In this document: positions 1 through 29,713 of the stretch, piece after piece
How the letters are laid out: each line of letters opens with the position of its first letter
How positions within the stretch are numbered: the first letter of the stretch is position 1
Virus record (IMG/VR): IMGVR_UViG_3300036820_000037
Span: 1 to 41,610 of that record
Length of the DNA stretch: 41,610 nt
DNA from: a virus
Direction: 5' to 3' (one strand)
Made by a program: the position numbers and the translations under genes
The notes under the pieces: generated by a model
Seen by the model: the letters and a program-made list of their open reading frames with translations, nothing else
Told to the model about the DNA's origin: nothing
Database searches by the model: none

Positions 1-1
1 T

Positions 2-241
2 CCCTGGCTCGGCACACTGCAAGTCATCTGCCGAACCTGCGAGACGGAGAACGTGTGGGATCGTCAGCGGGTCATCACGTTCCGCTTCGAATTTGCCGAA
101 GCCGGCACGTTGTCGGCGCCGAGCACGGCGGCCGATACCCAGGCGGCGACGAATAGCGCCGCCGATAGCGCTGAGGCTGGGATAACCAGCGACTATGTCA
201 ACAACGTGAACAGCATCCTGGCAGGGTTGGGATCAGCATGA
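2..241 (+). CDS. DNA-circularisation protein (Mu gpN-like), 3' end only, prophage A
   Basis: The reading frame is open from the window edge (frame starts at base 2) to TGA at 239-241, so only the last 79 or so residues are visible. They align nearly residue for residue with the end of the complete copy at 23894-24385: both share WLGTLQV, the DVWDRQRVITFR-type segment and the AADTQAATN segment, ending in GITSDYV. The family (DNA_circ_N, Mu gpN) is a baseplate/tail component of contractile phages. The stop overlaps the start of the gpP-like gene by four bases (ATGA), which indicates translational coupling. In prophage B a 282-aa gene separates the two; here it is missing, so this copy has either lost the gpN C-terminal part or never had it. 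Confidence 0.85.
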   Translation, partial: PWLGTLQVICRTCETENVWDRQRVITFRFEFAEAGTLSAPSTAADTQAATNSAADSAEAGITSDYVNNVNSILAGLGSA

Positions 242-1356
242 CCGCCAAGAATATCGCGCCCGATCAGGAAACTCTGACGATCTCCACTGGCGGCAAAACC
301 CTGTCGGGTTGGCTAGAAGTTAGCATCACGCGCGGCGTCGAAATCTGCCCGTCGTCCTTTTCCGTCAGCATGACCGAGCGCTTTCCCGGCCAAGCGGCAA
401 AGGCGGTTGTCGATCCGGGATCGCCCTGCACGATCGCGATATCGGGCACGACGATCTTGACCGGCTATGTCGACGCGTTCCTGCCCGGTTACGACGCGGA
501 CAGCCATACCGTCCACCTTTTGGGCCGCTCGAAGACGGAAGATATTGTCGATTGCTCGGTCGACGCGGACGCGGTTGGTTGGGAAATTTATGGCGGCAAC
601 GGCGCGGCGGTCAAGACGATCGCCAGCAAAATTTGTGCGCCCTTCGGCGTCAACGTCGTCATGCCCGACGGCGATTCCGCACTGCCCACCGGCGCCGCAT
701 TTTCCGTCTATCCCGGCTTTCGTTGCTTCCAGCTTATCGAAGAACTATGCCGCTCGGTCGGCATGCTGGCCTGGGACGATGCCAACGGCAATCTCGTGAT
801 CAGCAAGGCGGGAACTGCCGGCCGGGCCGCTTCATCCCTGGTCGAGGGACAGAACATTCTCGCGGCCGAAGCTATGTTCACCATGAACGAGCGCTTCAAT
901 ACCTACAAAGTCGTGAGCCAAGTTCCGAACGATATCACGGGACATATCAGCACCTATGCCTTTGCCAACCCGCAGGATAACGGCGTCCCGCGATACCGCT
1001 TGATGCTGATTCCGAGTGAGACGCCGCTGCAAAAACAATTTTTGCAGCGGCGCGCGAATTGGGAACGGTCTCGCCGCTACGGTCGCTCGCGCATGGCGCG
1101 GATCACGGTGCCGTCCTGGCGCGACAGCGCGGGGAACATCTGGCAACCGAACAGCGTGATCGGCGTCAACGCGCCGAACCTCAAAATCGTCGAGGATCGC
1201 GTCATTTCCGAAGTGACGTTTTATCGCGGCGAGCGCGGGACCTTAGCGACGCTGACGCTGATCGAAAAGCAGGGGCTTACGCCCGAGCCATTCTTCGCCA
1301 TCGGCGCGCTCGGCACGACGACCGGCAACAGTGTCGCGGGGACGATTTCAACATGA
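238..1356 (+). CDS. Baseplate hub protein, Mu gpP-like, prophage A
   Basis: This 372-aa protein belongs to the Mu gpP / T4 gp27-like hub family. These proteins form the central baseplate ring that carries the spike and connects to the tube. The N-terminal region (about residues 20-50, LSGWLEV then RGVEICPSSFSVSMTERFP) matches the prophage B copy at 28655-29713 (LSGWQEV, RGVTSCPSSFMVSLTERYP). Similarity continues through the HLLGRSKTEDIVDCS region and the C-terminal WQPNSV / KIVEDRVI segment. It overlaps the upstream gene by ATGA and the gp45-like gene by ATGA. The ATG at 238 is set by that coupling. An unusual perfect 14-bp inverted repeat lies inside the coding sequence at 1022-1052 and is absent from copy B. 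Confidence 0.88.
   Translation: MTAKNIAPDQETLTISTGGKTLSGWLEVSITRGVEICPSSFSVSMTERFPGQAAKAVVDPGSPCTIAISGTTILTGYVDAFLPGYDADSHTVHLLGRSKTEDIVDCSVDADAVGWEIYGGNGAAVKTIASKICAPFGVNVVMPDGDSALPTGAAFSVYPGFRCFQLIEELCRSVGMLAWDDANGNLVISKAGTAGRAASSLVEGQNILAAEAMFTMNERFNTYKVVSQVPNDITGHISTYAFANPQDNGVPRYRLMLIPSETPLQKQFLQRRANWERSRRYGRSRMARITVPSWRDSAGNIWQPNSVIGVNAPNLKIVEDRVISEVTFYRGERGTLATLTLIEKQGLTPEPFFAIGALGTTTGNSVAGTIST
1022..1052. repeat. Perfect 14-bp inverted repeat with 3-nt loop inside the gpP gene
   Basis: CGCCGCTGCAAAAA at 1022-1035 is followed by the loop CAA (1036-1038) and the exact reverse complement TTTTTGCAGCGGCG (1039-1052). As RNA it makes a hairpin with a GC-rich base and an AT-rich top. It encodes part of PLQKQFLQRR in the hub protein. 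The corresponding stretch of the second gpP copy in this window has a different sequence and no such hairpin. The role is unknown; an RNA regulatory hairpin or a protein-binding site are both possible. Confidence 0.9.
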
Positions 1357-1967: not shown

Positions 1968-1976
1968 GGATAGGGC

Positions 1977-4412: not shown

Positions 4413-4434
4413 TAGGTCCTAGGGAACTCGAAAA

Positions 4435-4644: not shown

Positions 4645-4657
4645 CTTGGCCCCGCCG

Positions 4658-5326: not shown

Positions 5327-5673
5327 TCGCCCGACTGGAATTGCCCAACCGCCGCCCGCACCTCGTGGAAGAATTTGAATGGAATGGCCGGCGCTGGCAA
5401 CTCGGGCTCGGTCTCGACGATGCCGGCGCGGTGCGGGAGATATTTCTTGAAGGCCCGAAGGCCGGAACTGATCTTCAGGCGCTCGCTGTTGATGCCGGGA
5501 TCGTGCTGTCCCGGCTGTTGCAGCGCGGCGATACTGTCGCCGAGATCGCGCGGAGCCTGAACGGGCTGGGCCTGACGGGCGACGCGGCGCCGACTTTGAT
5601 CCATGCCGCCGTCGCGCATGCGGCGCGGGCAGAACGGGACATGACGCCCGAATCCCCGCCGCCAGCGGCATGA
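5323..5673 (+). CDS. Small TSCPD-like (ribonucleotide-reductase accessory-domain-like) protein
   Basis: This 116-aa protein begins LPNRRPHLVEEFEW, with a core pattern EIFLEGPKAGTDLQAL then DAGIVLSRLLQRGDTV and IARSLNGLGLTGD. That pattern (G-x-K-x-G-T/S-D-L-Q ... LLQ-x-G-x ... I ... L) is the TSCPD domain seen at the C terminus of class II ribonucleotide reductases and as small stand-alone proteins in alphaproteobacterial prophages. The Cys-Pro-Asp motif that names the domain is not obvious here. It is translationally coupled to the gpZ-like gene. Its role in the phage is unknown. Confidence 0.55.
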   Translation: MIARLELPNRRPHLVEEFEWNGRRWQLGLGLDDAGAVREIFLEGPKAGTDLQALAVDAGIVLSRLLQRGDTVAEIARSLNGLGLTGDAAPTLIHAAVAHAARAERDMTPESPPPAA

Positions 5674-5689
5674 CGGCGTGAAGTCCTCT

Positions 5690-5896
5690 TTAGTTCACCC
5701 GCTCGCCCTCTTTCGGGCCGTGCCGCTGCAATTCTTCCACGGCCCGCAAGATCATCTGCCAGGCGGTTTGCTTCTCGATATCGCCTTGCTGCGCCGCTTC
5801 TTTAACCGTCTTCTCCGCGACGCCTGCCGCTTCGGCGCCATGGCGATCTATCAGCATCTTGGCGGCGCGGAAGGCGTCAATTTCGAGCAGGGGCAT
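5690..5896 (-). CDS. Small hypothetical protein, DUF6961-like
   Basis: The reverse-strand protein has about 68 residues from MPLLEIDAFRAAKML; an upstream start at 5941 would add 15 residues that look unrelated. The pattern AAKMLIDRHGAEAAGVAEKTV, then GDIEKQTAWQMILRAVEEL, resembles a small family common in alphaproteobacterial genomes and prophages that is predicted all-helical. No function is known to me. It is downstream of, and in the same orientation as, the zinc-ribbon membrane protein, and convergent with the tail operon that ends at 5673. Confidence 0.55.
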   Translation of the reverse strand: MPLLEIDAFRAAKMLIDRHGAEAAGVAEKTVKEAAQQGDIEKQTAWQMILRAVEELQRHGPKEGERVN

Positions 5897-5904
5897 AAGG
5901 TGGT

Positions 5905-6342
5905 CTATTCGTTGGCAGGCGCAAATTCCGTATAGACCCACCAGTTATCGTCCCGCTGCTCGTAACGGAAAAGGATATGTCGTTCCTGTGCATTATTGAG
6001 CACCGCATCGGCCTCACAGCGGACCAACTTATCTTCCGACGAAATGGTGTGAATGTTTCTAAGTTCGAGAACGGCGATACCTCCAACCTTGCCAATCGGC
6101 GCTTCAGCAATCGCTTTCGGAACATCATGCGGGCCGTCAGAGCAAGCGTGCCCCGACCCTTCGCCTCCGCTGTATTCTGAATATAAAAGAGCGCCAACGA
6201 CCAGGATGGCAAAACCGATGGTGGCATATTTGGGCCAGTCAATCGGCTTCAGACGATGGCCACAATGCGGACAGTTTTTAGCGTCGCGGGATACCATGCC
6301 AGCGCAAGCCGGGCATGCTGTCGTCCTTGGGGTTTCTGACAT
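5905..6342 (-). CDS. Zinc-ribbon single-pass membrane protein (probable lysogeny cargo gene)
   Basis: The protein has 145 residues from ATG 6342, preceded by GGGGGAAGAA; a longer frame from 6408 lacks a good site. Residues 1-35 hold a zinc ribbon with two pairs, CPAC and CPHC. A transmembrane segment follows at about 38-58 (YATIGFAILVVGALLY). The external or periplasmic C-terminal domain ends NWWVYTEFAP. Reverse orientation within a phage late region and a visibly more A/T-rich sequence than its neighbours are typical of 'moron' genes expressed in lysogens. Superinfection exclusion or stress sensing are possible roles, but nothing in the sequence proves either. Confidence 0.7.
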   Translation of the reverse strand: MSETPRTTACPACAGMVSRDAKNCPHCGHRLKPIDWPKYATIGFAILVVGALLYSEYSGGEGSGHACSDGPHDVPKAIAEAPIGKVGGIAVLELRNIHTISSEDKLVRCEADAVLNNAQERHILFRYEQRDDNWWVYTEFAPANE

Positions 6343-9147: not shown

Positions 9148-9505
9148 CACTATTAAGCTTGTCGCCGAATTGAAAAAGACAGCGGCAGATTGGAAGCGGC
9201 GTGCCGTAACGGCGGAATCGGCACTGGCCGAGCTCGGCTTTGTCAGAGCCGGTGACGCGAAGCCGCCTCCCGTCGAGCACAGAGCAGAGAAGGGGAGCCA
9301 CTCCGACCGCGCGGACATTCTATATGGGGTGCCAGCGATCGCAAAATATATGGGCCTCACCACACCGTCATGCCGGGCGCTTTGCGAGCGCGGCGATATT
9401 CCAACGTTCCGAATGAAGGGTCGAATTGTCTGCGCTCGCCGCAAGACGATCGACGCTCATTTAGAACGTCTGGCGAGCGCGCCGGCGGGAGGCGCCCGTG
9501 GCTAG
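9140..9505 (+). CDS. Excisionase-like HTH DNA-binding protein
   Basis: This 121-aa protein starts at ATG 9140. Residues 1-35 are a short coiled coil (KLVAELKKTAADWKRRAVTAE). Residues about 58-110 are a winged-helix/MerR-like excisionase-type HTH: ILYGVPAIAKYMGL, then CERGDIPTFRMKGRIVCARR, the pattern of the HTH_17 family. It ends inside the start of the integrase gene (8-base overlap). That position strongly suggests a recombination directionality factor that controls integrase, though some members of the family are plain repressors. Confidence 0.72.
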   Translation: MADTIKLVAELKKTAADWKRRAVTAESALAELGFVRAGDAKPPPVEHRAEKGSHSDRADILYGVPAIAKYMGLTTPSCRALCERGDIPTFRMKGRIVCARRKTIDAHLERLASAPAGGARG

Positions 9506-10937
9506 CATCCGAAAGCGCAGTTGGTCCTACAAGGGGCAGCAAAAGGAATCCTGGATCGTCGACTATTTTGACTTGGGCGGTAAGCGGCGTCAGAAAACTT
9601 TCGATCTTAAAAAGACGGCTGAAACTTACAGGAAAAAACTCCAACATGAGCTTCACACAGGCGAGCACGTCTCCGGGGGTGAAGAGATCACGGTTCGCGA
9701 TTTGGTAGAACAATTCATCCATCACAGCGAAGTGAGGATGGCGAACAAGGCCATCGGAAGAACGCGACATAACGCAATTAGCTCTATCTTCAAGTGCTAT
9801 GTAATTCCGTATTTCGGCCCCCGTAAGTTTAACGAGCTAACCGGTCGCGATATTGAGGATTGGGCAAATTCGCTGAGGATGCGCGGCCGGAAGGATGGTA
9901 GTGGTCTGGCAGCACAATCGCTGAATCACGCTCTATCTCTGATGAAGATGTTGGAGGATTTTGCAACCAAGCGCGGCGCTTCAAAGCGGCGGATCATGGG
10001 CGATGCTCGAAAAGAGATCGGCTCACTCCAAGGTGATCCGATCCGAACTTTCACGCTGGAAGAGGTTCAACAGTTACTATCAGCTATACCGAAGAGCGCT
10101 CGGGGAAGCAGTCCGCGCGACCATCATTTAATGCTCTGTTACGTTCGGATTGCGGCCTTCTGTGGGTTACGCCTTGGCGAAATAAACGGCCTTAAGCCAG
10201 AGTGCGTCGATTTTGATAAGCATCTAATCCGAGTGCGCCATTCACTGACACGGGTTGGAGAGCTCAAGGGACCCAAGACGAAAGCCGGTGTGCGCGATGT
10301 ACCTATGCCGACGATCGTTGCAGACGCCCTTTACGAATGGCTCAGGCGATATTATGCGCCAAACAAAACCGGAGTATTTTTCACGACTCGGACAGGGTGC
10401 CCTCTCCATCGGATTGACATTAACAATCGGTGGCGACGCCTTCTCCGGAATGCTGGCCTGGCTTCGGGGAGGTCGCTCCACTTTCACGCTCTCCGGCACT
10501 TCGCGGCTAGCTGGATGATTGAACATCAACTGCCGTTGCCTGATGTGGCGCGGGTACTCGGCCACGCAAAATTTGATATGACGCTCCAAATCTACGCGCA
10601 CCCAGTTCACTCACTGAGCCATCATCAGCCCATATTTGACAGAATGGCCGGGGCTGTGATGGAGGGGGTTGCATTGCCGGCGCCCTCCGCCCGTTCACGC
10701 GTACTTGAGGCCCGGTTTGGAGAAGATGAAGAAAGGCGGAATGCTATTCGCAAGCGACTGGTGGTCGAAGGCATTTCGCACGGACGCTTGTGTCAAGCTA
10801 CAGGGCTAAATCAGACGGCCTTGAGTAGATATCTTTCGGGGCAGGCTCGCTTGCCGGATCAATTTGCCCCTGTCCTTCAGGTTTTCGTCAACGAAGGATT
10901 TGACGCCATGATCGGAAAGACTCCGGTGGCGGCCTAG
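9498..10937 (+). CDS. int: Tyrosine-recombinase phage integrase with C-terminal HTH extension
   Basis: This 479-aa site-specific recombinase contains an AP2-like arm-binding N terminus (residues 1-55), a SAM-like core-binding domain (about 62-170) and a catalytic domain (about 185-370). The visible catalytic residues are R225 (FCGLRLGEI), K262 (TKAGVRD), H330-x-x-R333 (HALRH), H356 (LGHAK) and Y366 (QIYAHP). All are present, so it should be active. About 110 residues follow the tyrosine, which is unusual. Residues 415-470 (HGRLCQATGLNQTALSRYL then GQARLPDQ) look like a Cro/CI-type HTH. The gene is visibly less GC-rich than the phage structural genes. It is the last gene before the truncated terminase of prophage B, so an att junction should lie at or after 10938. 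Confidence 0.93.
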   Translation: MASIRKRSWSYKGQQKESWIVDYFDLGGKRRQKTFDLKKTAETYRKKLQHELHTGEHVSGGEEITVRDLVEQFIHHSEVRMANKAIGRTRHNAISSIFKCYVIPYFGPRKFNELTGRDIEDWANSLRMRGRKDGSGLAAQSLNHALSLMKMLEDFATKRGASKRRIMGDARKEIGSLQGDPIRTFTLEEVQQLLSAIPKSARGSSPRDHHLMLCYVRIAAFCGLRLGEINGLKPECVDFDKHLIRVRHSLTRVGELKGPKTKAGVRDVPMPTIVADALYEWLRRYYAPNKTGVFFTTRTGCPLHRIDINNRWRRLLRNAGLASGRSLHFHALRHFAASWMIEHQLPLPDVARVLGHAKFDMTLQIYAHPVHSLSHHQPIFDRMAGAVMEGVALPAPSARSRVLEARFGEDEERRNAIRKRLVVEGISHGRLCQATGLNQTALSRYLSGQARLPDQFAPVLQVFVNEGFDAMIGKTPVAA

Positions 10938-11547: not shown

Positions 11548-11811
11548 TTGCGTGATCCGCGCCAAAGCATTTTCTACGGCATGAGCCGGGAACAATTGCA
11601 GGCGGCACTTACAAGTGCGCAGCAAGCCTATGTCGCCCTCTCGACCGGTACCAAGGGCGTCTCGTTTTCCTACACGCAGGGCGATGGCACGAAGTCCGTC
11701 ACCTATGCGCAGACCGACACGATGAGGCTGGTGGCGATGATCGATGAGCTGAAGGAACTGCTCGGGATCGTGCGCCGCGCCCGGCGCCCAATGAGATTCT
11801 GGTATGCCTGA
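11548..11811 (+). CDS. Head-tail joining protein, gpW-like
   Basis: This 87-aa protein starts at TTG 11548, with AGGAG eight bases upstream. The pattern LQAALTSAQQAYVALSTG, then FSYTQGDGTKSVTYAQ, and a C-terminal LVAMIDELKELLGI helix is that of lambda gpW-like/head-completion proteins encoded between terminase and portal. These monomers plug the portal after packaging. It overlaps the portal start by eight bases, and the position supports the call. Confidence 0.78.
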   Translation: MRDPRQSIFYGMSREQLQAALTSAQQAYVALSTGTKGVSFSYTQGDGTKSVTYAQTDTMRLVAMIDELKELLGIVRRARRPMRFWYA

Positions 11812-13444
11812 AGTCAGCATCATCGATCCGTCGACCGGCAAACCATTCCAGCAACCGAAAGCACGCGCGCTGGCGAACGGCGGCGGCGCACCCTTCGATG
11901 CCGCCGATGTTTACGGCGAGCATATGGCGGCGTGGCGGCCATATCTATGGTCGGTCGACGGCGAGCGAAATATGTTCCGCGACCGAATCGTCGCTCGCAT
12001 CAGGGATATCGAGCGGAACGATGGTTGGGCCTCGGGCGGGATTACCCGGATCGTCGACAACGTCATCGGCGCCAATTTTAGGCCGGTGGCAAAGCCGGAT
12101 TATCGGGCGCTCGCCGCTTATTCGGGGAACAAGGCATTCGATGCGGTATGGGCCGACGAGTTCGGTCGCGCCCTCGAAACGAGCTGGCGGACATGGGCCG
12201 ATGACCCGGCGAAATATTGCGACGCGCAGCGCAATCTGACCGTGACGCAAATGATGCGTCTCGCCTTCCGCCACAAGATCATCGATGGCGATGCGCTCGC
12301 GATGCTGCTTTGGATGCCGGAAAGAATCGGGAAGGGGCGGGCGCGGTACAGCACCGCTGTGCAATTGATCGATCCCGACCGGCTGTCGAACCCGCAATTG
12401 CGCTTCGACCAGCAAGCCATGCGCGGCGGTGTTGAAGTCGACGAATGGGGTGTCGCGGTCGGCTATTGGATCAGGCGGGCGCACCAAGGCGATTGGTTTT
12501 CTGCCGCGGAAAGCGTCCATTGGGATCGTGTGCCGCGGGAAACGGCGTGGGGACGCCCGATCATCGTGCATGATTTCGAGCACGATCGGGCCGGCCAGCA
12601 TAGGGGCGCCGGCGGTGTACTGACGCCGGTGCTGCAGCGTCTTCGCATGCTCGTCAAATACGATGCGACCGAACTGGATTCGGCGGTCATCAACGCGATT
12701 TTCGGTGCCTACATCGAAAGTCCGTTCGACCATGATCTCGTTCAGGAGGCGATGGGCGACGATAAGACCCTCCCGGTTTACCAGGAAGATCGGGCGGCCT
12801 TCCACAAAGAGCATCGCACCATGCTTGGCGGCGCAAGGGTGCCGATCCTGTTTCCCGGCGAGAAAATGAACATGCTCACGGCGACACGGCCGACCAGCAA
12901 TTTCGCCGCGTTCGAGCAGGCGGTGTTGCGGAACGTCAGCGCCGCCCTTGGTCTGTCGGCCGAACAGTTGAGCCAGGATTGGTCGCGGACCAATTACTCA
13001 AGCGCGCGCGCGGCGCTGCTCGAAGCCTGGAAAACGCTCTTGCGCCGGCGCAGCGATTTCTCGGTTGGTTTTGCGTCGCCCATCTATTCCGCCTTTCTCG
13101 AAGAGGCGATGGAAGCCGATTATCTGCCGCTGCCGAATGGCGTCGTGCCGGACTTCCTGGAATGCCGAACCGGCTACGCCGGCGTACGTTGGATTGGACC
13201 GGGGCGAGGGTGGGTGGACCCGGTCAAGGAAAAACAGGCGGCCATTCTCGGGATCGAGGGCGGGCTCAGCACCCTCGAAAGCGAAGCGGCGGAGCAGGGC
13301 CGGTATTGGGAAGACGACCTTGAACAGCGGCGTATCGAGATTGCCCGCTATCGCGCCGCGAATGTTCCGCTTCCAAGCTGGGCGCGCATGTCGGTCAGTT
13401 ATGAGGATAAGCCCGAGGAAGAGGTCGGGGGTGCGCCGGCATGA
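11804..13444 (+). CDS. Portal protein, lambda gpB family
   Basis: This 546-aa protein forms the dodecameric DNA channel at one capsid vertex. Family hallmarks are RDRIVARIRDIERNDGWASG and TRIVDNVIGANFRPVA near residues 60-90, RLAFRHKIIDGDALAML, the QLIDPDRLSNPQ segment, and the C-terminal LSQDWSRTNYSSARAAL. Length matches lambda-type portals (about 530 residues). It overlaps gpW upstream and the protease downstream (ATGA at 13441), in the head-gene order seen in lambda. Confidence 0.93.
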   Translation: MPEVSIIDPSTGKPFQQPKARALANGGGAPFDAADVYGEHMAAWRPYLWSVDGERNMFRDRIVARIRDIERNDGWASGGITRIVDNVIGANFRPVAKPDYRALAAYSGNKAFDAVWADEFGRALETSWRTWADDPAKYCDAQRNLTVTQMMRLAFRHKIIDGDALAMLLWMPERIGKGRARYSTAVQLIDPDRLSNPQLRFDQQAMRGGVEVDEWGVAVGYWIRRAHQGDWFSAAESVHWDRVPRETAWGRPIIVHDFEHDRAGQHRGAGGVLTPVLQRLRMLVKYDATELDSAVINAIFGAYIESPFDHDLVQEAMGDDKTLPVYQEDRAAFHKEHRTMLGGARVPILFPGEKMNMLTATRPTSNFAAFEQAVLRNVSAALGLSAEQLSQDWSRTNYSSARAALLEAWKTLLRRRSDFSVGFASPIYSAFLEEAMEADYLPLPNGVVPDFLECRTGYAGVRWIGPGRGWVDPVKEKQAAILGIEGGLSTLESEAAEQGRYWEDDLEQRRIEIARYRAANVPLPSWARMSVSYEDKPEEEVGGAPA

Positions 13445-18927: not shown

Positions 18928-20679
18928 ATGGCTGGGATTCCGATTCCGGGCGTGCCCTCGACGATCCGGGTGCCGCTCTTTTATGCCCAGTTCGATCCGA
19001 GCCAGGCGAACACCCTGCAAACCAATCGGCAGGCGCTGCTGATCGGCCAAATCACCTCGGCGGGCACGCTCAATCCGCCAGCACCGGTGACCGGAGCGGT
19101 CAGTGCGGCGACTGCGCTCAACGGCACCGTGCTGACTTTCTCGTCGGTTCCCGCGGGCGTCGTGGCCGGACAAGTCGTCACCGATACGACGCACAACACC
19201 GTGATTCCGACGGGCGCGATGGTCCTGTCGAAGACCTCGACCACCGTCACGATATCGGAAGAGGTGACCGGTGCTGGCATATCGAGCGGCGACACCATCG
19301 TCTTCACGACGCCCTTTGTCTCGGCCCCCATCCTGGCGAGTTCACAAACCCAGGTGGACGGCCTCTGCGGCGCCGGATCGGAACTGGCTTGGGCCTATTG
19401 GTTCTTCCGCCAGAACAATCAGACCACCACGCTCTACATCCTGCCCCTGCAGGACGATCCCGCCGCCGTCGCCGCCGCGGGCAACATCAATATCGCCGGC
19501 ACGCCGACCCAGAACGGAACGATCCCGCTCTATGTCGATGGGCAATCGGTCCCGGTCCTGGTCACAACGGCGATGTCCGACACCCAGATCGCGGCGGCAG
19601 TGGCGGCAGCCATCGTTGCGGCCGGTCTCACGGTGACCGCGACCGCGACGAGTGCGAATGCTGCGGTGACGGCCAACAATGCCGGCCTGTGCGGCAACGA
19701 TATCGATATCCGGCTCGCCTATTACGGTGCCGCGAACGGCGAAGTCATCCCGCCGGGTCTCACCATCACCGTCACGCCGATGTCCGGCGGTACCACCAAC
19801 CCGGCCACGGGATTGGCGGCAGCCCTGGCCCTCTTGCCGGACGTGTCCTACGATTTCGTCGACCATCCTTATAGCGATGCCGGATCGCTGAACGCGCTGC
19901 AATCCTTCCTCGGCGATGCCACGGGCCAGTGGAGCCCGATGAAGCAGCTCTATGGTGGCGGCTTCACCGCCGCGCGCGGCACATTGGGTGCGCTGCAGAC
20001 GCTCGGTCTCGCGCGGAACGACCAGCACGAAACCATCATGGGCTTCTATGACAGCCCATCGGCGCCCTATGCCTGGTCGGCGGCCCTATGCGGCATGGCG
20101 GCGGCCAGCCTCTCGGTCGATCCCGCGGTGCCGTGCCGCGAGGTCGCGCTGGTCGGCATCCTGCCGCCGCCGGTGGGTTCGCAGTTCCAGCTCTTGGACC
20201 GAAACACCCTGCTCTGGTCGGGCATCAGCACCTTCAAGGTCATCGGCGGTCAGGTCATCGTCGAGCGCGCCATCACCACCTATCAGCTCAACACCTTCGG
20301 CGCGCCCGACAATTCGATGCTGTCGGTCGAGAAGATGTTCACGCTCTATTTCAGCATCCAGACGCTGAAGGACTACGTCACCTCGAACTATGGCCGCATG
20401 AAGCTGGCGGATGACGGCACCCGTCTTCCGCCCGGCGCCAATATCGTCACCCCGACGATCGTCAAGGCCAGTCTCATCGGGTTCTATGACGACGAACTGG
20501 TCGGCAACGGCTGGGCGCAAAATACCGATGCGTTCGCGGCCGGCCTGCAGGTGGCGCGCAATCAGACCGATCCCGACCGGCTCGACGTGCTGTTCGATGT
20601 CATCGTCGAGGATCAGCTCAACATCTTCGCCGTGCTCGCTCAGTTCAGCCAATCGGCGACGCTGGGCCAAGCGGCGTAA
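18928..20679 (+). CDS. Contractile tail sheath protein, Mu gpL-like
   Basis: This 583-aa sheath subunit starts at ATG 18928 after GGAG. The N terminus MAGIPIPGVPSTIRVPLFYAQFD is the family opening. Residues about 55-130 are an insertion shared with the neck protein. Residues about 165-250 carry the common sheath beta domain (NGTIPLYVDGQSVPVLV, TDTQIAAAVAAAI). The C-terminal core has VDHPYSD, GFTAARGTLGALQTLGLARND, EKMFTLYFSIQTLKDYVTSNY and VARNQTDPDRLDVLFDVIVEDQLNIF, which form the helical sheath contacts. It powers tail contraction together with the tube that follows 20 bases later. Confidence 0.93.
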   Translation: MAGIPIPGVPSTIRVPLFYAQFDPSQANTLQTNRQALLIGQITSAGTLNPPAPVTGAVSAATALNGTVLTFSSVPAGVVAGQVVTDTTHNTVIPTGAMVLSKTSTTVTISEEVTGAGISSGDTIVFTTPFVSAPILASSQTQVDGLCGAGSELAWAYWFFRQNNQTTTLYILPLQDDPAAVAAAGNINIAGTPTQNGTIPLYVDGQSVPVLVTTAMSDTQIAAAVAAAIVAAGLTVTATATSANAAVTANNAGLCGNDIDIRLAYYGAANGEVIPPGLTITVTPMSGGTTNPATGLAAALALLPDVSYDFVDHPYSDAGSLNALQSFLGDATGQWSPMKQLYGGGFTAARGTLGALQTLGLARNDQHETIMGFYDSPSAPYAWSAALCGMAAASLSVDPAVPCREVALVGILPPPVGSQFQLLDRNTLLWSGISTFKVIGGQVIVERAITTYQLNTFGAPDNSMLSVEKMFTLYFSIQTLKDYVTSNYGRMKLADDGTRLPPGANIVTPTIVKASLIGFYDDELVGNGWAQNTDAFAAGLQVARNQTDPDRLDVLFDVIVEDQLNIFAVLAQFSQSATLGQAA

Positions 20680-21574: not shown

Positions 21575-23884
21575 ATGGCCGATTTCTCCTCCCGGTTCGC
21601 GGTCGCGATCAGCGCGAGCGATGAGACGAAGGCGGGCGCCGATAAGGCGTCGCGCACGCTCGGCGATGCGCTGGCAAAGCCCGCTGGTGCCGCAAAGCTC
21701 ACGGGCTCGAAAGCGGCCGACGCCTTCCAAACGGGCATCAATCGTCCGCTCGATCTGGCGAAACGCAAAACCGGCGAAGTCGATTTATCGATCCGGAATC
21801 TGAAGGATCGACTGGCGAGTCGCTGGCATACTGGCGGCATGGGTAAGGCTTTCGATAGTGTCGGCGCCACGCAGATGGCGACCTCCAGTTTTGCCAACGA
21901 TATCGGTAGTGCGTTTTCCCCGGCCGAGGATCTGGCGGCGTTGCTGGCTGGCGGCAGCCTATTCACCGCTGTCAGCAAATTCGACAGCAGCGCGAATGAA
22001 CTGTCGCGCACAGCGGCGCGCTTCGATATCTCGACCGATGCGTTGCAGCGATGGCGCGGTGCAGTCCGGCTCGGCGGCCTCGACGCGGGTGCCGCGACGC
22101 AATCGATCGACACGCTATCGCGGATAATGGGTGCGGCGAACCATCATCTTCCGGAAGCGAAGGAAGCAATGCAGGCTGCATCCGGAATTGAAGTTCGGAC
22201 GGGCATCAAATTAAATTTTGCCGGGGATTTTGAGCACTTTCTCCGTGACCTTAATCGGGCATTCCAGCACCTTGATGCGCCCACCCAACGCCGGGCCGCT
22301 CAAGCGTTTGGTGTGACGGCGATGCTGGATGAGCTGAAAAAGTCGCCAGCACAACTCGAAAAGGATTTAGCGGACGCGGCGAAGCACCGGAACCTGACGC
22401 CCGAGCAGATCAAGTCTGGGGACGAAGGCAATCGCTCCATTGTCGCAGCGACAGACTCCACCATCGGGTTTGCCCAGGCGGTGGCGGCCAATCTTTCGCC
22501 AGCTTTCACGCCGATTTTCAATGGCTATTCGCATTGGCTCGACGAGCTGAAACAATCGCCGCGCGTGCTCGACGCCGTCGGCGCTGGGGCGGTCCTGCTA
22601 TCGACGGTGCTGACAGGAAAGCTCTTCAAGAGCGTGTCCAGCCTGACGAGCGCGGTCAGCAATTTCAGTTCGACGTGGAAAGACAGTCCTCTTGGAAAAG
22701 GTGCGGCACCAGGCGGTGGTATGGTCCCAGGCGGTGCGCCAGAAGCCGCGCCGACACCAAAGGGAGCGCCCGGCGCGAAGGCGAATTTCAAGCCGCTATC
22801 CGATATGTCCCCGCGCACCGATTGGGGACTTGGACTTGGACTGGCTTACGGCAAAAGCCTGCAAGATCGGCAGCAATGGGACCGCGACTTCGGGGCGGCG
22901 AAGAAGAAGTACGCCGACGATGTCAAAGCGCTTCACGCGTGGATCGTGCAATATAATCACGATCATCCTTTTGTGGCACCGTATGGGCCGGGCACGGCCG
23001 ACGCCTTGGCGCCGCTGACTAAAGAGTCTGGCGCGAGCCATCGCTTTGAGCCGATGACACCGAAAACGATGGCGCCGCGTAGTGATGTCGCCCCATCCAG
23101 CGTGAGGAAGCTGGCGCAATCCAGTGCGCTGGCCTTCGCGCCGAGCAATGCCTACGCGCCGCTCGCTGATTTGGTCGGCCGCGGTGAAGGCGGATATAAT
23201 TCGGTCAATCGCGGCGCCCCCGGCGATTACAAATCCGGCACGGAAAACCTCGCCACCATGACGGTCGACCAGGTCATGGCGGCGCAGCGGGCCGGCAAAT
23301 TCAACGCGGCGGGAAAATATCAGATAACCAAAAACACGCTGCCCGGGGCTGTTGAGGATCTCCAACTCACCGGTCGGGAAAAATTCGATAAAGCGCTACA
23401 GGATCGCATCTTCGCGCAATACCTGATCGGTGATAAGCGGCCGCAAATCCGCGACTATCTCGCTGGCCGCAGCGACGATCTTCACGGCGCCGCGCTTGCC
23501 GCGTCGGAAGAATGGGCGAGCATCGCCGATCCCGACACCGGCCGGACGCGCTATCCCGGTCACAACCGCGCCTCGATCTCGCCGGCCGAAATCGAGGATG
23601 CACTGGAATCTGCCCGCACGCAGCGGCAGGTGCGCCAGGGTGGTGTTGACCGTCTCCGCGCTCCGCTCGACACTGAGGACGCGCAGCAACCGCGCCGCCA
23701 TCCGACCGTCGAACCCGCCGAGTTGCCGCCTGACCTCGCGGCTTATCAGCCAGGTCAGGGCGATAGTTCGCATGAGGTGATGGTGCGGTTTGTCGACGCG
23801 CCGCGCGGGATGCGCGCTGATCTATCTCGGGCAAAAGGGCCGGCCAAGATCGGGGTGCGCATCGAACATTCGATGCCGGTATAA
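21575..23884 (+). CDS. Tape-measure protein with C-terminal muramidase-like domain, prophage B
   Basis: This 769-aa protein sits after the chaperone and before gpN, the canonical position. Residues 1-130 match the prophage A tape measure (MADFSSRFAVAIS, SRWHTGGMGKAFDS). The middle has a hydrophobic stretch around residue 330 (VGAGAVLLSTVLTG). Residues about 530-655 form a cell-wall hydrolase-like domain: LVGRGEGGYNSVNRG, then NLATMTVDQVMAAQRAG and NAAGKYQITKNTLPG, as in phage muramidase/glycosidase proteins, with E in RGEGGY the likely catalytic acid. This domain is not the one found in the A protein. A short conserved tail ends ADLSRAKGPAKIGVRIEH. It should set tail length and open a path through peptidoglycan during DNA entry. 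Confidence 0.85.
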   Translation: MADFSSRFAVAISASDETKAGADKASRTLGDALAKPAGAAKLTGSKAADAFQTGINRPLDLAKRKTGEVDLSIRNLKDRLASRWHTGGMGKAFDSVGATQMATSSFANDIGSAFSPAEDLAALLAGGSLFTAVSKFDSSANELSRTAARFDISTDALQRWRGAVRLGGLDAGAATQSIDTLSRIMGAANHHLPEAKEAMQAASGIEVRTGIKLNFAGDFEHFLRDLNRAFQHLDAPTQRRAAQAFGVTAMLDELKKSPAQLEKDLADAAKHRNLTPEQIKSGDEGNRSIVAATDSTIGFAQAVAANLSPAFTPIFNGYSHWLDELKQSPRVLDAVGAGAVLLSTVLTGKLFKSVSSLTSAVSNFSSTWKDSPLGKGAAPGGGMVPGGAPEAAPTPKGAPGAKANFKPLSDMSPRTDWGLGLGLAYGKSLQDRQQWDRDFGAAKKKYADDVKALHAWIVQYNHDHPFVAPYGPGTADALAPLTKESGASHRFEPMTPKTMAPRSDVAPSSVRKLAQSSALAFAPSNAYAPLADLVGRGEGGYNSVNRGAPGDYKSGTENLATMTVDQVMAAQRAGKFNAAGKYQITKNTLPGAVEDLQLTGREKFDKALQDRIFAQYLIGDKRPQIRDYLAGRSDDLHGAALAASEEWASIADPDTGRTRYPGHNRASISPAEIEDALESARTQRQVRQGGVDRLRAPLDTEDAQQPRRHPTVEPAELPPDLAAYQPGQGDSSHEVMVRFVDAPRGMRADLSRAKGPAKIGVRIEHSMPV

Positions 23885-23893
23885 AAAAGGGCC

Positions 23894-24385
23894 ATGGTCG
23901 ATTTCCCCTTTGCCACGGTGGCGGCGTCGTTCCGCAATGTCACGTTCCAGATCGAGAACGAGCGGATGCAGGGCGGCCGAAGGGGACCTGATCATCAGTA
24001 TCCATTTCGCGACGTGCCCTTTGCCGAAGACACCGGACGCAAGCAGCGCCGGCTACCGCTGATCGGATTTCTGATCGGCGATGATGTCGGCCCGCAGGCT
24101 GCCGCCCTGGTAGCTGCTTGCGAGAAGCAGGGTCCGGGGCCGTTGGTGCATCCCTGGCTCGGCACGTTGCAGGTCGTGTGTCGAAATTTCGAGACGGAAG
24201 ATGTGTGGGATCGTCAGCGGGTCATCACGTTCCGCATGGAATTTGCCGAAGCGGGGCAGGTGCAATATCCCTCCACCGCTGCTGACACCCAGGCAGCAAC
24301 GAATGCCGCCGCCGACAACGCAGAGGCGGGGATCACCAGCGATTATGTCGATGACACGGCGAGCGTGATGGCGAGCCTCGGATGA
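23894..24385 (+). CDS. DNA-circularisation N-terminal-domain protein (Mu gpN-like), prophage B
   Basis: This 163-aa protein starts at ATG 23894 nine bases after the tape measure. It has the DNA_circ_N pattern: FRNVTFQIENERMQGGRR, HQYPFRDVPFAEDTGRKQR then LPLIGFLIGDD and HPWLGTLQV. The end is nearly identical to the partial copy at the window start. In Mu, gpN is one protein of about 500 residues; here the N-terminal domain is its own gene and overlaps the next by ATGA. These proteins are structural baseplate components in spite of the historical name. Confidence 0.85.
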   Translation: MVDFPFATVAASFRNVTFQIENERMQGGRRGPDHQYPFRDVPFAEDTGRKQRRLPLIGFLIGDDVGPQAAALVAACEKQGPGPLVHPWLGTLQVVCRNFETEDVWDRQRVITFRMEFAEAGQVQYPSTAADTQAATNAAADNAEAGITSDYVDDTASVMASLG

Positions 24386-25230
24386 GCGGTATCGCAAGTT
24401 CCCTGGTCGGTCGTGCCGTCAACCCCGTGATGGCGCAGTTCAGCGACCAGGTGACGGCGGCGGCCGCCGATGCCACCGCGACCTATAATGTGGTCTATGG
24501 CCTCGCGGCGCCCGCCGGCGAGAGCTACGGGCGATATTTCGTCGGCACCGATCCGCTGGTCGACTATCAGGATGCCGCAACGGACGTGCCCAACCTGATC
24601 GCCCAGGGCGTGACGCTTAGGGCATCCGTAGCGTCCGCGCTTGCGACGGCATCGGTAGCCATAGAAGGCGACCCAGGCACGTTCGCCGCCTCCATCATCG
24701 CCGTCACGGAAGCACTCCGCGCCGCATGCGCCAATCCGGCCGATGCCGTTAGGTTGCTCGGCGATCTCGCGGGATTTGCGCCGCAGATCAACTTCGCCGC
24801 CGGCGACGCGACCGGTACGGCCATGACGACCCTTGCGCAAAATGCCGCCGCCTTGATGCGGCGTGCCGCCGGTATTTCCCTGGCCCGAGCGTCAGCCACT
24901 TATACGCCGACCTCGCAACAGGATGCGGCGACGGTACTTGATCAGATCGGCGAAAGCCTCGGCGAACTGGCGACGGCCGCCGCCGACGTGTTCGACGACA
25001 ATGCGTATAGTGTACTATTGAGCCTACGCACGGCCGTCTATGCCGACCTCAACACGCGGGGCGCATCGCTGGCGCCGGTCGTGACCCGGACGATGCCGAT
25101 CCCGCTACCGTCGCTCGTGGTTGCCTACCGCCTTTATCAGGATGCCTCGCGCGCCGATGAGCTGACGGCAAGAAATGATCCGCCGAACCCACTTTTCTTT
25201 CCGCTGCAAATCGAAGCGCTGGCGGAATAA
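24382..25230 (+). CDS. C-terminal half of gpN-like baseplate protein (split gene)
   Basis: The 282-aa product is translated from ATG 24382, inside the stop of the N-terminal-domain gene. It reads SGIASSLVGRAVNPVMAQF, then long A/T/D-rich helices. Its end is RTMPIPLPSLVVAYRLYQDASRADELTARNDPPNPLFFP, which carries the LPSLVLAYRLY ... E...RN-x-P-x-P-x-F pattern found at the C terminus of full-length gpN proteins. The split therefore keeps both halves of the family. The prophage A copy of the locus lacks this gene completely. Confidence 0.75.
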   Translation: MSGIASSLVGRAVNPVMAQFSDQVTAAAADATATYNVVYGLAAPAGESYGRYFVGTDPLVDYQDAATDVPNLIAQGVTLRASVASALATASVAIEGDPGTFAASIIAVTEALRAACANPADAVRLLGDLAGFAPQINFAAGDATGTAMTTLAQNAAALMRRAAGISLARASATYTPTSQQDAATVLDQIGESLGELATAAADVFDDNAYSVLLSLRTAVYADLNTRGASLAPVVTRTMPIPLPSLVVAYRLYQDASRADELTARNDPPNPLFFPLQIEALAE

Positions 25231-26341: not shown

Positions 26342-27121
26342 ATGGCAATAGGTAAAAAGGTAAAGACTGAGACGACCGAAATTACGGTCATCGAAATCTC
26401 GGAAGGTAGCGTGACACTCGGCATTGTCGGCACGTCGCCTTTCGTGTTCAACCGCATGTCGGAAAAAGCCAAGCGGGAATTGCTGTATCCGCGCGGCGGC
26501 AAGAAGAAGCCCGGCGAGAGCCTGAAGCACGATCCTTTGTTGGAATATCGCGACAGCGTGTACCGCGAAACGGCAAAGGACGCAGTGACGCGGCTGCTAT
26601 TCCCCGCCGCGGCGTTCAAGAAAGCGATTGCCACGGCGGCGCTGGATATGCCAGGCGCGGCGAAGGCAGAAATCGGGCGACTGACTTGGGCCGAAGGATT
26701 CTACGTCCCAATCTATGGTGTTCCGAAACTATGGATGGCCGTCGTCCGAATGAAGGACATCTCGCGGACGCCGGATATTCGAAGCCGGGCGATCCTGCCG
26801 GAATGGTGCTCGATCGTGACGTTCCGCTTCGTGCGACCGAACTTGAACGAGCAGACGATGTTTTCGCTCGGGGTTGGCTCCGGCCGCACCGTTGGGGTCG
26901 GCGACGGCCGGCAGGAAAAGGGCACGCTGTCCATGGGGCAGTATCGGCCCGTGTCGCATACTGATTTGGCGCTGATGAAATTCATGAAGGAAAACGGCCG
27001 CGTTCCCCAGGATAAGGCGCTTGCGAATCCCGAGTTCTTCGATGCCGAGAGCGAGGATTTGTTCCGTTGGTTTCAGGAGGAACGCGTCAAACGCGAAGGC
27101 AAGAAGAAGGAGGACGCGTGA
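26342..27121 (+). CDS. Unknown protein with RAMP/Cas7-like sequence features
   Basis: This 259-aa protein contains an N-terminal strand with SVTLGIVGTSPFVFNRMSEKA (about 23-43) and FPAAAFKKAIATAALDM (87-103). A strand pair GFYVPIYGVPKLWM follows, then LPEWCSIVTFRFV (152-164), and a glycine-rich segment from GSGRTVGVGDGR to KGTLSMGQYR (179-202). The order 'G-x-x-P-F/L ... hydrophobic-P-A/S-x-x-x-K-x-A-I/L ... G-rich loop near the C terminus' is that of RAMP-fold nucleic-acid-binding proteins such as Cas7 and Cas5. This is my reading of the pattern, not a database match. The C-terminal 55 residues are charged helix. It overlaps the next gene by one base and lies upstream of the pentamer array, suggesting a protein-nucleic-acid complex. 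Confidence 0.6.
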   Translation: MAIGKKVKTETTEITVIEISEGSVTLGIVGTSPFVFNRMSEKAKRELLYPRGGKKKPGESLKHDPLLEYRDSVYRETAKDAVTRLLFPAAAFKKAIATAALDMPGAAKAEIGRLTWAEGFYVPIYGVPKLWMAVVRMKDISRTPDIRSRAILPEWCSIVTFRFVRPNLNEQTMFSLGVGSGRTVGVGDGRQEKGTLSMGQYRPVSHTDLALMKFMKENGRVPQDKALANPEFFDAESEDLFRWFQEERVKREGKKKEDA

Positions 27122-27609
27122 TGAAGCCACGCATGGACAAGGAGAAAGTCCGCGAAGTCCTGAAGGCGCTGGATGCAAAGCATCGCCTCACGCCAAACGC
27201 GGTGGTCGAGGCGGCGAAATCGAAGACGTCGCCCCTGCATCCGCTGTTCACCTGGGACGACAAGAAAGCAGCGGTCGAGCGCAGACTCGATGAAGCGAGG
27301 AGTCTGATCGAGCGTTTCAAGATCGAGGTAACGACCACGCATTACACAATGCAGGTGCCGGAGTTTGTCCGCGATCCGACGGTTGGCGGCAAGAATCAGG
27401 GCTATGTCGGCGTGGTACGGTTGCGCTCGGACAAGGAAACGGCGCGCGAAATCGTTATTTCAGAGTTCGGCCGGGCCGCTTCCTGTTTAGCCCGAGCGCA
27501 AGCGGTAGCCGCCGCACTCGGGTTGACGAAGGAAATCGAGAAGCTGCAGAAGCGCATCGTTGCGATTGCTGACGGCCTCCAAGAACGACAGGTCGATGCC
27601 GCCGCCTAG
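27121..27609 (+). CDS. Unknown partner protein of the RAMP-like gene
   Basis: The 162-aa product starts at ATG 27121, sharing one base with the TGA of the upstream gene, so translation is coupled. Residues 10-65 read EVLKALDAKHRLTPNAVVEAA, then KTSPLHPLFTWDDKKAAVERRL, a helical module. Residues 70-110 look like a short beta domain (VPEFVRDP, GYVGVVRLRSDKETA). The C-terminal 50 residues form a helical hairpin (EFGRAASCLARAQAVAAAL, IEKLQKRIVAIADGL). I recall similar two-gene pairs among phage hypothetical proteins but know no function. Immediately after its stop begins the 5-nt-phased noncoding array. Confidence 0.65.
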   Translation: MKPRMDKEKVREVLKALDAKHRLTPNAVVEAAKSKTSPLHPLFTWDDKKAAVERRLDEARSLIERFKIEVTTTHYTMQVPEFVRDPTVGGKNQGYVGVVRLRSDKETAREIVISEFGRAASCLARAQAVAAALGLTKEIEKLQKRIVAIADGLQERQVDAAA

Positions 27610-27625
27610 CGGCATCGATACGCAC

Positions 27626-27866
27626 GGCAAGGCGGTCAAGGTACGGTGAGTGAGGCGCTTTATGGCGAGGTTGGGCTCGACGTGTCGAGGCGTGGTGAGG
27701 CAAGCCAGTCTTGGAACGTCATGACAAGCTGAGGCCGGGTTTGGTGCTGCACGCTTAGGCAAGGTGTGGCGTGATCCGGCGGTCAAGGTTCGATAAGGTT
27801 AGGCCTGCCGTGATGTGGCGTGGCCAAGTAAGGCCCGGCGAGGTCCGGTACGGCGTGGCAAGATGC
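27626..27866 (+). repeat. Noncoding 5-nt-phased GGYNH array (49 units)
   Basis: The 241 bp can be cut into 49 consecutive units, 45 of 5 nt and four of 4 nt (at 27631, 27650, 27709 and 27778). In this register 45 of 49 units begin with G, 47 of 49 have a pyrimidine at position 3, and only three of the 45 pentamers end in G. Examples in order near the end are GGCCC GGCGA GGTCC GGTAC. The units are not identical, so the conserved feature is the phase, not the sequence. All reading frames are broken by stops, apart from chance arginine/glycine-rich text. The array starts 17 bases after the RAMP-partner stop and ends just before a hairpin, so it is probably the 3' part of the same transcript. Confidence 0.85.
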
Positions 27867-27874
27867 TGCAGGAG

Positions 27875-27902
27875 ATGGAAGCGGTGGCAACATCGCTTCC
27901 AT
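27875..27902. terminator. Hairpin between the pentamer array and the convergent membrane-protein gene
   Basis: ATGGAAGCG (27875-27883) and CGCTTCCAT (27894-27902) are exact complements around a 10-nt loop. The hairpin lies eight bases after the array and five bases past the stop of the reverse-strand gene, so it could end both transcripts. There is no T-run on either side, so efficiency as an intrinsic terminator is doubtful. Confidence 0.5.
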
Positions 27903-27907
27903 GTCTG

Positions 27908-28627
27908 CTACTGCGGTAGAGTTAATCGCCATTTCGCTGATTCGGCCAGCCCAGCAGCGTTATTTTCGCAGTTGTTTTCGTCCAACCCCAGCGACATGCA
28001 AGCAGTCAAAAAGTCGCGTCTACTCGGTGCGCATAGTCTCTCCAAAAGAAAGCGCCAATCGTCTTTTGGAACATTTTTGGCGATGGTCGCATGAGACAAG
28101 CACGCATTGTATGTCACGGCGGCGGTGTTGCTCGCGATCTTCTGGTGAATAGGATGGGCGGGGTCAATTTTGAGCAGCGTGTAAAATAGCGGCAAAAAAT
28201 TCCCGAAATCCCTATCGTCAAGAATTTCCAATTCATAAATTCCGGCAGCGAGTTCCCTGCCATCATCATAGGCAAAAGGCCCGGCTAAAAATTTTCCGGA
28301 TTTAACCCGTGTCGGTGGGGCATGCGGCGGAAGACAATTAACATCGCAAGGCATACCGCCCTCAGCCATTCTTCGGGCGCCATCAGGTAGCCATTGTTGA
28401 GAGAGCATAACGATGATGTCGCTGTTGTCCGGAACATTGATTCTTCCGGTGACTGTAAGGCCGCTGGAATTGTCAACGACAACATCCTGAACGTGGGCTG
28501 AACCGTCAGCAAAGGCCGAGGGGGTGGCTGCCGGCAATCCCTGCGCGAAGTAGCCCACAAAATAAAAGAATACGATCAAGCCCGCGATGCTGGCGGCTGT
28601 GCCGAGCCATCGGCCTGTCCTGCTCAT
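27908..28627 (-). CDS. Single-pass membrane-anchored extracytoplasmic protein (cargo gene)
   Basis: This is a 239-aa reverse-strand protein from ATG 28627, chosen because GGAGGAAACAG precedes it; the frame runs 31 codons further upstream without a better site. The N terminus MSRTGRWLG and AASIAGLIVFFYFVGYFAQG form a membrane anchor (about 8-28). The rest is outside the cytoplasm and holds a beta-rich part (VVDNSSGLTVTGRINVPDN, IIVMLSQQWLP), paired cysteines (MPCDVNCLPP) and further cysteines near the end. I recognise no family. It is inserted in reverse between gpN and gpP genes and is visibly more A/T-rich than them, so it is a likely lysogenic-conversion gene. Superinfection exclusion is a guess. 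Confidence 0.7.
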   Translation of the reverse strand: MSRTGRWLGTAASIAGLIVFFYFVGYFAQGLPAATPSAFADGSAHVQDVVVDNSSGLTVTGRINVPDNSDIIVMLSQQWLPDGARRMAEGGMPCDVNCLPPHAPPTRVKSGKFLAGPFAYDDGRELAAGIYELEILDDRDFGNFLPLFYTLLKIDPAHPIHQKIASNTAAVTYNACLSHATIAKNVPKDDWRFLLERLCAPSRRDFLTACMSLGLDENNCENNAAGLAESAKWRLTLPQ

Positions 28628-28654
28628 TCTGTTTCCTCCACACCGCGAGATTGC

Positions 28655-29713
28655 ATGGCCGCCTCTGAAGACGACGAACTGACCGTGCAAACCAATGGCG
28701 CGACCTTGTCCGGTTGGCAAGAGGTCGAGGTGCGCCGTGGTGTCACAAGCTGTCCGTCATCCTTCATGGTCTCGCTTACGGAACGGTATCCAGGCGATGT
28801 CACGGGAGCGATTGTGACGCCAGGCGCGACATGTACGGTTTTTCTCGGGGGCGACCAAATTTTGAATGGTTACATCGATAGGCTTAAGATCGAGATTGAC
28901 GGCAATTCGCACCGAGTCAGCATTGTCGGGCGCGGCCGCGCCGAGGATGTTGTTGATTCATCTGCCGACCCCGATGCGCTTGGCGGTTGGGAATTTCGTG
29001 GCGGCATGCTGGGCGCGACCGTGAGGAAACTAATCGCGCCCTACAATGTCGGACTGCAACTGCCGGATGGCGATGTCTCGTTGCCCAGTGTTGTGTTCTC
29101 GATCCAGCCTGGCGTGACCTGTTACAGCATGATCGAGCAATTGGCCCGCGCGACCGGACAACTTGTGTGGGACGCGTCGAACGGGGATTTGGTAATTGGG
29201 CAGGGAGGCACCGGCGGCCGGGCCGGAAACGCTTTGGTCGAGGGCGCTAATATTGAGGTCGCATCTGCCGAATTTGGCATGGATATGCGCTTTTCGGATT
29301 ATCTAGCCGTGCTGCAAGACGCCGGCCTTATGGGCCACGTCTCTCTTAAAGGCGAGGCAAAAGACAGCGGCGTGACGCGGCATCGCCTCAAGATGATTAT
29401 CGTTGAAGGGACGTTGATCAACAACTACCCGACCATTCGGGCGCAATGGGAAGCGGCGCGGCGCCTCGGGCGCTCCCGCATTGCGCATGTGACAGTCACA
29501 GGATGGCGTGACGTGAATGGGGATCTGTGGACGCCGAACACTGTCTGCTCGATCCAGTCGCCGACGCTGAAAATTAGCGAGGATCGGGTCATCGCGGAAT
29601 GCGTGTGGAAGCGAAGCGATGAGGGTGGCACACAAACCGAGATGATGCTGATCGAGGAAAAGGGGCTGAAGCCGCAGCCTTTTATCCCGGTCGACATTTT
29701 TGGTGTGACATGA
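28655..29713 (+). CDS. Baseplate hub protein, Mu gpP-like, prophage B
   Basis: This 352-aa orthologue of the hub protein at 238-1356 shows shared segments RGVTSCPSSFMVSLTERYP, the VSIVGRGRAEDVVDSSADP region and LGRSRIAHVTVTGWRDVNG. The C-terminal half has IEEKGLKPQPF, where copy A has IEKQGLTPEPF. It forms the ring that holds the spike. The ATG at 28655 lies only 27 bases from the divergent start of the membrane-protein gene, so that insertion has replaced whatever normally preceded this gene. Its stop overlaps the spike start (ATGA at 29710). Confidence 0.88.
   Translation: MAASEDDELTVQTNGATLSGWQEVEVRRGVTSCPSSFMVSLTERYPGDVTGAIVTPGATCTVFLGGDQILNGYIDRLKIEIDGNSHRVSIVGRGRAEDVVDSSADPDALGGWEFRGGMLGATVRKLIAPYNVGLQLPDGDVSLPSVVFSIQPGVTCYSMIEQLARATGQLVWDASNGDLVIGQGGTGGRAGNALVEGANIEVASAEFGMDMRFSDYLAVLQDAGLMGHVSLKGEAKDSGVTRHRLKMIIVEGTLINNYPTIRAQWEAARRLGRSRIAHVTVTGWRDVNGDLWTPNTVCSIQSPTLKISEDRVIAECVWKRSDEGGTQTEMMLIEEKGLKPQPFIPVDIFGVT

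What the first reader, a model, noticed from the sequence alone, without database searches (positions are those of the whole stretch)
26342..27902. Candidate undescribed nucleoprotein system: RAMP-like protein, partner and a 5-nt-phased noncoding array
Two translationally coupled genes (26342-27121 and 27121-27609) are followed 17 bases later by 241 bp that keep a strict 5-nt register. Of 49 units, 45 begin with G and 47 have a pyrimidine at position 3, while the unit sequences themselves vary; a hairpin follows. Selection on phase with free sequence at other positions is what a repeating protein subunit contacting every fifth nucleotide would leave. The upstream protein shows RAMP/Cas7-like features, and Cas7 proteins coat RNA in a regular register (6 nt in known effectors). 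An RNA-coating filament made by this operon is a concrete hypothesis. The register count is seen; the fold and binding are inference.
Basis: partly seen in the sequence, partly recalled or inferred. Interest (0 to 1): 0.92.

Follow-up and report, generated by a model that had tools for sequence, protein, structure and literature searches.

The report
VIPR phage RNA-guided DNA-targeting system
This phage carries a small RNA-guided system of the recently described VIPR kind, in which a CRISPR-like RAMP protein reads a five-base-repeat guide RNA; two of its three guides match, by the published skip-one-base code, a tail gene of a second, related phage module on the same piece of DNA, but not the phage's own version of that gene.

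Summary
The two coupled genes and a GGYNN pentamer array are at the stated place. Lag-5 autocorrelation of G is 0.42 (z 6.9). The array scores 61.5 in a pentamer HMM; the next best site in the window scores 10.3. The register is not strict: the array breaks at 4-nt units. It is not undescribed: a 2026 preprint (PMC13142463) names it VIPR, with Vipr + vap + GGY/NN vrRNAs that recognise dsDNA through the NN dinucleotides with one skipped base. Our profile's only significant PDB hit is the SUSP1 Vipr protein (E 6e-10). Of 143 loci including the window, found by protein sequence alone, 138 carry such an array; four of the other five are truncated. New here: three guides delimited by 4-nt register breaks. 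Two match the same baseplate-hub gene (window 238-1356) at 22/26 and 24/28 bases, in codon register with the skip at the wobble base. The phage's own hub is spared. Across 676 guides, skip-1 gives 9 significant targets, skip-0/2/3 give 1/0/0, permuted guides 0. New member of a known kind.

The parts
26342..27121 (+). vipr: RAMP/Cas7-like protein, 259 aa, with glycine-rich loop VGVGDGRQEKG
   Evidence: 13 invariant columns including G185, G187, R190; SUSP1 Vipr prob 97.6; PDB 36pp_D, E 6e-10; pLDDT 91; Csm / Cas7-type folds
27121..27609 (+). vap: Vipr-associated protein, 162 aa, mostly helical; family phrog_15946; unrelated in sequence to SUSP1 vap1
   Evidence: follows or neighbours vipr in relatives; pLDDT 93; no significant fold match
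27622..27872 (+). vrRNA array of GGYNN units with 4-nt register breaks
27631..27634 (+). 4-nt junction GGCG before guide A
27635..27703 (+). guide A (AA AC GA GA GC AT GA TG TC GT GA GT GA AA); holds one internal 4-nt unit GTGA
   Evidence: 22/26 bases of its first 13 dinucleotides match window 532-570
27704..27707 (+). 4-nt junction GCCA between guides A and B
27708..27777 (+). guide B, 14 units (TT AC AT AA GA CG TT GC AC TA AA GT GT CC)
   Evidence: 24/28 bases match window 877-918
27778..27781 (+). 4-nt junction GGCG between guides B and C
27782..27871 (+). guide C, 18 units; no target found
27875..27902 (+). 3' tail hairpin after the last guide (inner stem, GCAA loop)
   Evidence: z -4.4
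238..1356 (+). predicted target gene: baseplate hub (phrog_177) of a second, partial Mu-like tail module
532..570 (+). target site of guide A (KTEDIVDCSVDAD), in codon register, skip at wobble
877..918 (+). target site of guide B (FTMNERFNTYKVVS), in codon register, skip at wobble
28655..29713 (+). the phage's own hub, 47% identical; not matched (16/28 for guide B, at most 19/32 for guide A)

Best explanation
The locus is a VIPR system carried by a Mu-like temperate myophage. Vipr (26342-27121) oligomerises along a transcript of the array, holding each GGY and presenting each NN. The array holds three guides separated by 4-nt register breaks. Each guide recognises double-stranded DNA by pairing its NN dinucleotides with every first and second base of a triplet, skipping the third. 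Guides A and B point at two places in the hub gene of a second Mu-like tail module, so the system most likely represses a competing phage or satellite while sparing the phage's own hub. Vap assists, as SUSP1 vap1 does, in a way unknown here. Shown here: homology, RAMP fold, array, 1-nt-skip matches in codon register, sparing of the self copy. Inferred: expression, RNP formation, repression, competitor identity.
For: Published definition of VIPR read in the full main text. Profile of 58 homologues hits SUSP1 Vipr by hhalign (prob 97.6), and PDB 36pp_D 'SUSP1 Vipr protein' is its only significant PDB match. AF2 pLDDT 91; all top Foldseek matches are CRISPR Cas7-type effectors. 138 of 143 loci, found by Vipr or vap protein sequence alone, carry a GGYNN array on the same strand; shuffles give none; four of the five without it are truncated. 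The detector also recovers the SUSP1 vrRNAs. Guide B matches 24/28 at window 877; 0 of 2000 permuted guides reach it. Guide A matches 22/26 at 532 in the same gene. Skip test over 676 guides: 9 significant targets with one skipped base, 1/0/0 for 0/2/3, 0 for permuted guides; 8 of the 9 are in coding register with the skip at the wobble base.
Against: No expression data. The guide scaffold is degenerate (G at position 2 in 31 of 46 units). Neither match is perfect (12 of 14 and 10 of 13 dinucleotides). Guide C has no target. The guide A match needs a 4-nt unit read as a full unit, a parse chosen among two. The left tail module is cut by the end of the contig, so its nature as a competitor is not shown.
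Confidence: 0.93

Rival explanations
1. A RAMP filament that coats its own structural RNA, with the phase as the only selected feature.
For: RAMP fold and phased array.
Against: The NN positions carry information: they match coding sequence by a fixed code far above permuted guides, two guides converge on one gene, and the SUSP1 relative is shown to bind DNA in PMC13142463.
Confidence: 0.03
2. An RNA-targeting (type III-like) effector that pairs with messenger RNA.
For: Closest folds are Csm and Cas7-11 subunits.
Against: In both window targets, and in all eight in-register targets, the guide has the same sense as the mRNA and so cannot pair with it; it would pair with the template DNA strand. 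PMC13142463 shows dsDNA binding.
Confidence: 0.02
3. A degenerating VIPR remnant: intact proteins but a decayed array, no longer functional.
For: Degenerate scaffold, irregular unit lengths, imperfect target matches.
Against: Both genes are intact with conserved residues; 45 of 46 five-nt units keep the pyrimidine; guides still match a target in register; close relatives have similarly degenerate units.
Confidence: 0.12
4. A simple tandem repeat without function, or an artefact of composition.
For: Low-complexity look; TRF finds no array here.
Against: 138 of 143 homologous loci keep it on the same strand while the units themselves differ; shuffles never produce it.
Confidence: 0.01

Closest known systems
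VIPR (Viral Interference Programmable Repeat), SUSP1 / P. fulva type II, PMC13142463
   Same: RAMP protein plus small accessory gene in a phage; vrRNA of GGY/NN pentamers; hairpin tail; 1-nt-skip target code; targets in competing phage elements.
   Different: Vipr only distantly related to SUSP1 Vipr; vap unrelated to SUSP1 vap1; guides in one continuous array separated by 4-nt register breaks, instead of separate ~100-nt units each with its own tail. The seven published types could not be assigned because the supplement was not readable.
Class 1 CRISPR effectors (Csm3/Cas7, Cas7-11)
   Same: RAMP fold, glycine-rich loop.
   Different: 5-nt instead of 6-nt register, gapped code, no CRISPR repeats seen, no cas genes seen.
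phrog_4652 / phrog_15946
   Same: Database families of unknown function hit by the two proteins.
   Different: Uncharacterised in the database; this work links them to VIPR.

Membership tests
VIPR | Vipr protein: RAMP fold with RRM core and G-loop, homologous to SUSP1 Vipr | tested here: met
VIPR | Minimal locus: vipr plus a vap gene, mostly in phages | tested here: met
   vap family differs from SUSP1 vap1
VIPR | Noncoding array of alternating GGY and hypervariable NN, 9-16 repeats per guide | tested here: met
   guides of 14, 14 and 18 units; the 18-unit guide is slightly above the published range
VIPR | Structured 3' tail on each vrRNA | tested here: inconclusive
   One strong hairpin after the last guide; none between guides, only 4-nt junctions
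VIPR | Target recognised with one skipped base, mostly at codon wobble | tested here: met
   (sequence matches only)
VIPR | vrRNA expressed and bound by Vipr; dsDNA binding; repression | not testable with these tools
   Needs experiment
Class 1 CRISPR-Cas | CRISPR array with repeats and spacers, cas genes | tested here: not met
   No repeat-spacer array found in the window by tandem or direct-repeat scans; no PADLOC model matches either protein; no Pfam match for the first protein

The most novel reading that the evidence does not exclude
This clade is a distinct VIPR architecture in which many guides are written without spacers in one continuous pentamer transcript, and a 4-nt register break (GGCG|GTC or GGCA|GG) is itself the signal that divides guides, so the RNP filament resets phase at each guide. 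In this phage it is aimed at a second tail module lying in cis on the same DNA.
Probability: 0.4. Interest if true: 0.65.

Novelty: new member of a known kind. Interest (0 to 1): 0.55.

Why it matters
VIPR is a months-old class of RNA-guided DNA recognition, proposed as older than CRISPR. This locus gives an independent computational confirmation of the 1-nt-skip code in a clade far from SUSP1, with natural targets including a hub gene in cis, terminase, tape measure and another phage's vipr gene. It also gives a testable idea of how one continuous array is divided into guides. Homologues in cultured phages of Gordonia, and probably M. smegmatis, make bench tests easy.

Tried and rejected
Search with P0001 alone in IMG/VR found nothing; the alignment A1 was needed. 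Exact scans for guides A and B in IMG/VR found nothing. A shorter guide B scan gave 4 hits; none reaches the level of the window site, the best is 21/28, and that stretch reads through stop codons. Guide C: three IMG/VR contigs share one stretch that matches only in the seed. A shorter seed gave 83 hits, nearly all a conserved VVHKPDPTKSRGQY motif of what looks like a glycosyltransferase family, matching little beyond the seed; two contigs hit a gp25/W-like tail gene, again little beyond the seed. 385 alphaproteobacterial genomes gave no guide C match. Host not identified; hub and portal relatives are spread over Acetobacteraceae, Enterobacterales and others. Rfam: only a sub-threshold sRNA match over the tail. 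Promoter/terminator scan uninformative. Counting substitutions in homologous guide blocks is biased by how pairs were chosen, so it is not used.

Full report
What was checked. The window is a 41.6-kb virus record, linear, of no named host. Its main part is a Mu-like temperate myophage: integrase 9498-10937, portal 11804-13444, S49 protease, major head protein, tail sheath 18928-20679, tape measure 21575-23884, DNA_circ_N 23894-24385, hub 28655-29713, gp45, baseplate J. The finding lies between the DNA-circularisation/hub-like gene 24382-25230 and the hub.

The array. G autocorrelation at lag 5 is 0.42, z 6.9. A pentamer HMM that tolerates slips scores 61.5 at 27622-27872; the next site in the window has 10.3. 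The register is broken: 46 five-nt and 5 four-nt units, and no fixed frame has more than 28 of 48 units beginning with G. Three of the 4-nt units (GGCG, GCCA, GGCG) are each followed by GTC and divide the array into guides A, B and C; relatives are divided in the same way, most often by GGCG or GGCA, into blocks of mostly 7-12 units. A strong hairpin follows the last guide.

What it is. A paper search found the VIPR preprint (PMC13142463; no other paper in the library holds both terms), which describes RAMP proteins of phages with an accessory gene and vrRNAs of GGY/NN repeats that bind dsDNA by the NN bases with one skipped base. A profile of 58 homologues (A3) matches SUSP1 Vipr by hhalign at 97.6%, and its only significant PDB hit is 36pp_D, 'SUSP1 Vipr protein', E 6e-10. 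The AlphaFold2 model (pLDDT 91) matches Csm and Cas7-11 subunits. The second protein is a confident, mostly helical model without a significant fold match and is unrelated in sequence to SUSP1 vap1. The HMM also recovers the SUSP1 vrRNAs, which serves as a positive control.

Do homologues have the array? Relatives were gathered by protein sequence only. Counting the window, 138 of 143 loci have a GGYNN array on the same strand as vipr; shuffled loci give none. Four of the five without it end at or just after the genes; L045 is the one real exception.

What the guides point at. With one skipped base, guide B matches window 877-918 at 24 of 28 bases, 12 of 14 dinucleotides; 0 of 2000 permuted guides reach this anywhere in the window. 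Guide A matches window 532-570 at 22 of 26 bases; its local score exceeds all 300 permutations. Both sites lie in one gene, the hub at 238-1356, and both are in codon register with the skipped base at the wobble position. The phage's own hub, 47% identical, is matched at only 16/28 for guide B and at most 19/32 for guide A. Guide C has no target yet.

What the target is. Bases 2-241 encode the end of a DNA_circ_N homologue, followed directly by hub, gp45 (1356-1967), a tape measure with tail lysozyme (1977-4412) and a minor tail protein (4646-5326). This is a second, divergent Mu-like tail module cut by the contig end. In it the hub follows DNA_circ_N with a 4-nt overlap; in the main phage the VIPR cassette lies between them. 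Whether it is a neighbouring prophage, a remnant or a satellite cannot be told.

Test of the code on the whole clade. For 676 unique guides against 2.7 Mb (both strands) of neighbourhood sequence with arrays masked, the number with a significant target (E<1e-3) is 1, 9, 0, 0 for skips of 0, 1, 2, 3, and 0 for permuted guides. Eight of the nine are in a coding frame with the skip at wobble and the guide in the sense of the mRNA, so the RNA would pair with the template DNA strand and cannot pair with the message. Targets include terminase (hit by guides from two different phages), tape measure, hub, capsid/protease, a RecA-like ATPase, a primase-helicase and the vipr gene of another element (names are my reading of the translations). 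E-values assume equal base frequencies; the permuted control does not.

Verdict. A new member of VIPR, in a clade with punctuated continuous arrays. Expression, RNP formation and repression remain to be shown for this locus.

Noticed in passing
window 1-5935: A second, divergent Mu-like tail module (DNA_circ_N end, hub, gp45, tape measure, minor tail protein) at the left end; a 33-bp perfect direct repeat joins 53-85 and 24203-24235, so an assembly or recombination junction is possible.
   Followed up: partly
L007 2197-3414 (Mycobacterium phage Gorge gp54): Vipr is split between two frames and followed by a vap homologue in the first frame, with a GGYNN array just upstream; either a decayed gene or a programmed frameshift. 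27 mycobacteriophage records hold the vap homologue.
   Followed up: partly
L002 4569-4838 (Gordonia phage Pipp gp43): The annotated hypothetical protein MAGMARLGLTRPGTAWLG... is the vrRNA array translated, so it is very likely a false gene.
   Followed up: yes
L004, L005: VIPR loci on plasmids of Sulfitobacter and Paracoccus, with guides divided by GGCGGTC.
   Followed up: partly
L098 30-62 and L141 1000-1035: Guides from L106 and L108 both match the terminase motif EAIETAQGAHDDP in two different phages.
   Followed up: partly
L031 3232: A guide from L053 matches 16/16 in the vipr gene of L031: one VIPR aimed at another.
   Followed up: partly
L048 5227-6066, L060 5706-6529: Very long arrays of about 170 units in Clostridiales/Faecalibacterium contigs.
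   Followed up: no
L039: Planctomycetota contig of 4.5 kb with five separate array pieces around one vipr.
   Followed up: no
window 27908-28720 (-): 270-aa open frame on the minus strand in a region of lower GC, no family match; may be a second cargo gene.
   Followed up: partly
L045: The only untruncated homologous locus without a detected GGYNN array; perhaps a different consensus.
   Followed up: no
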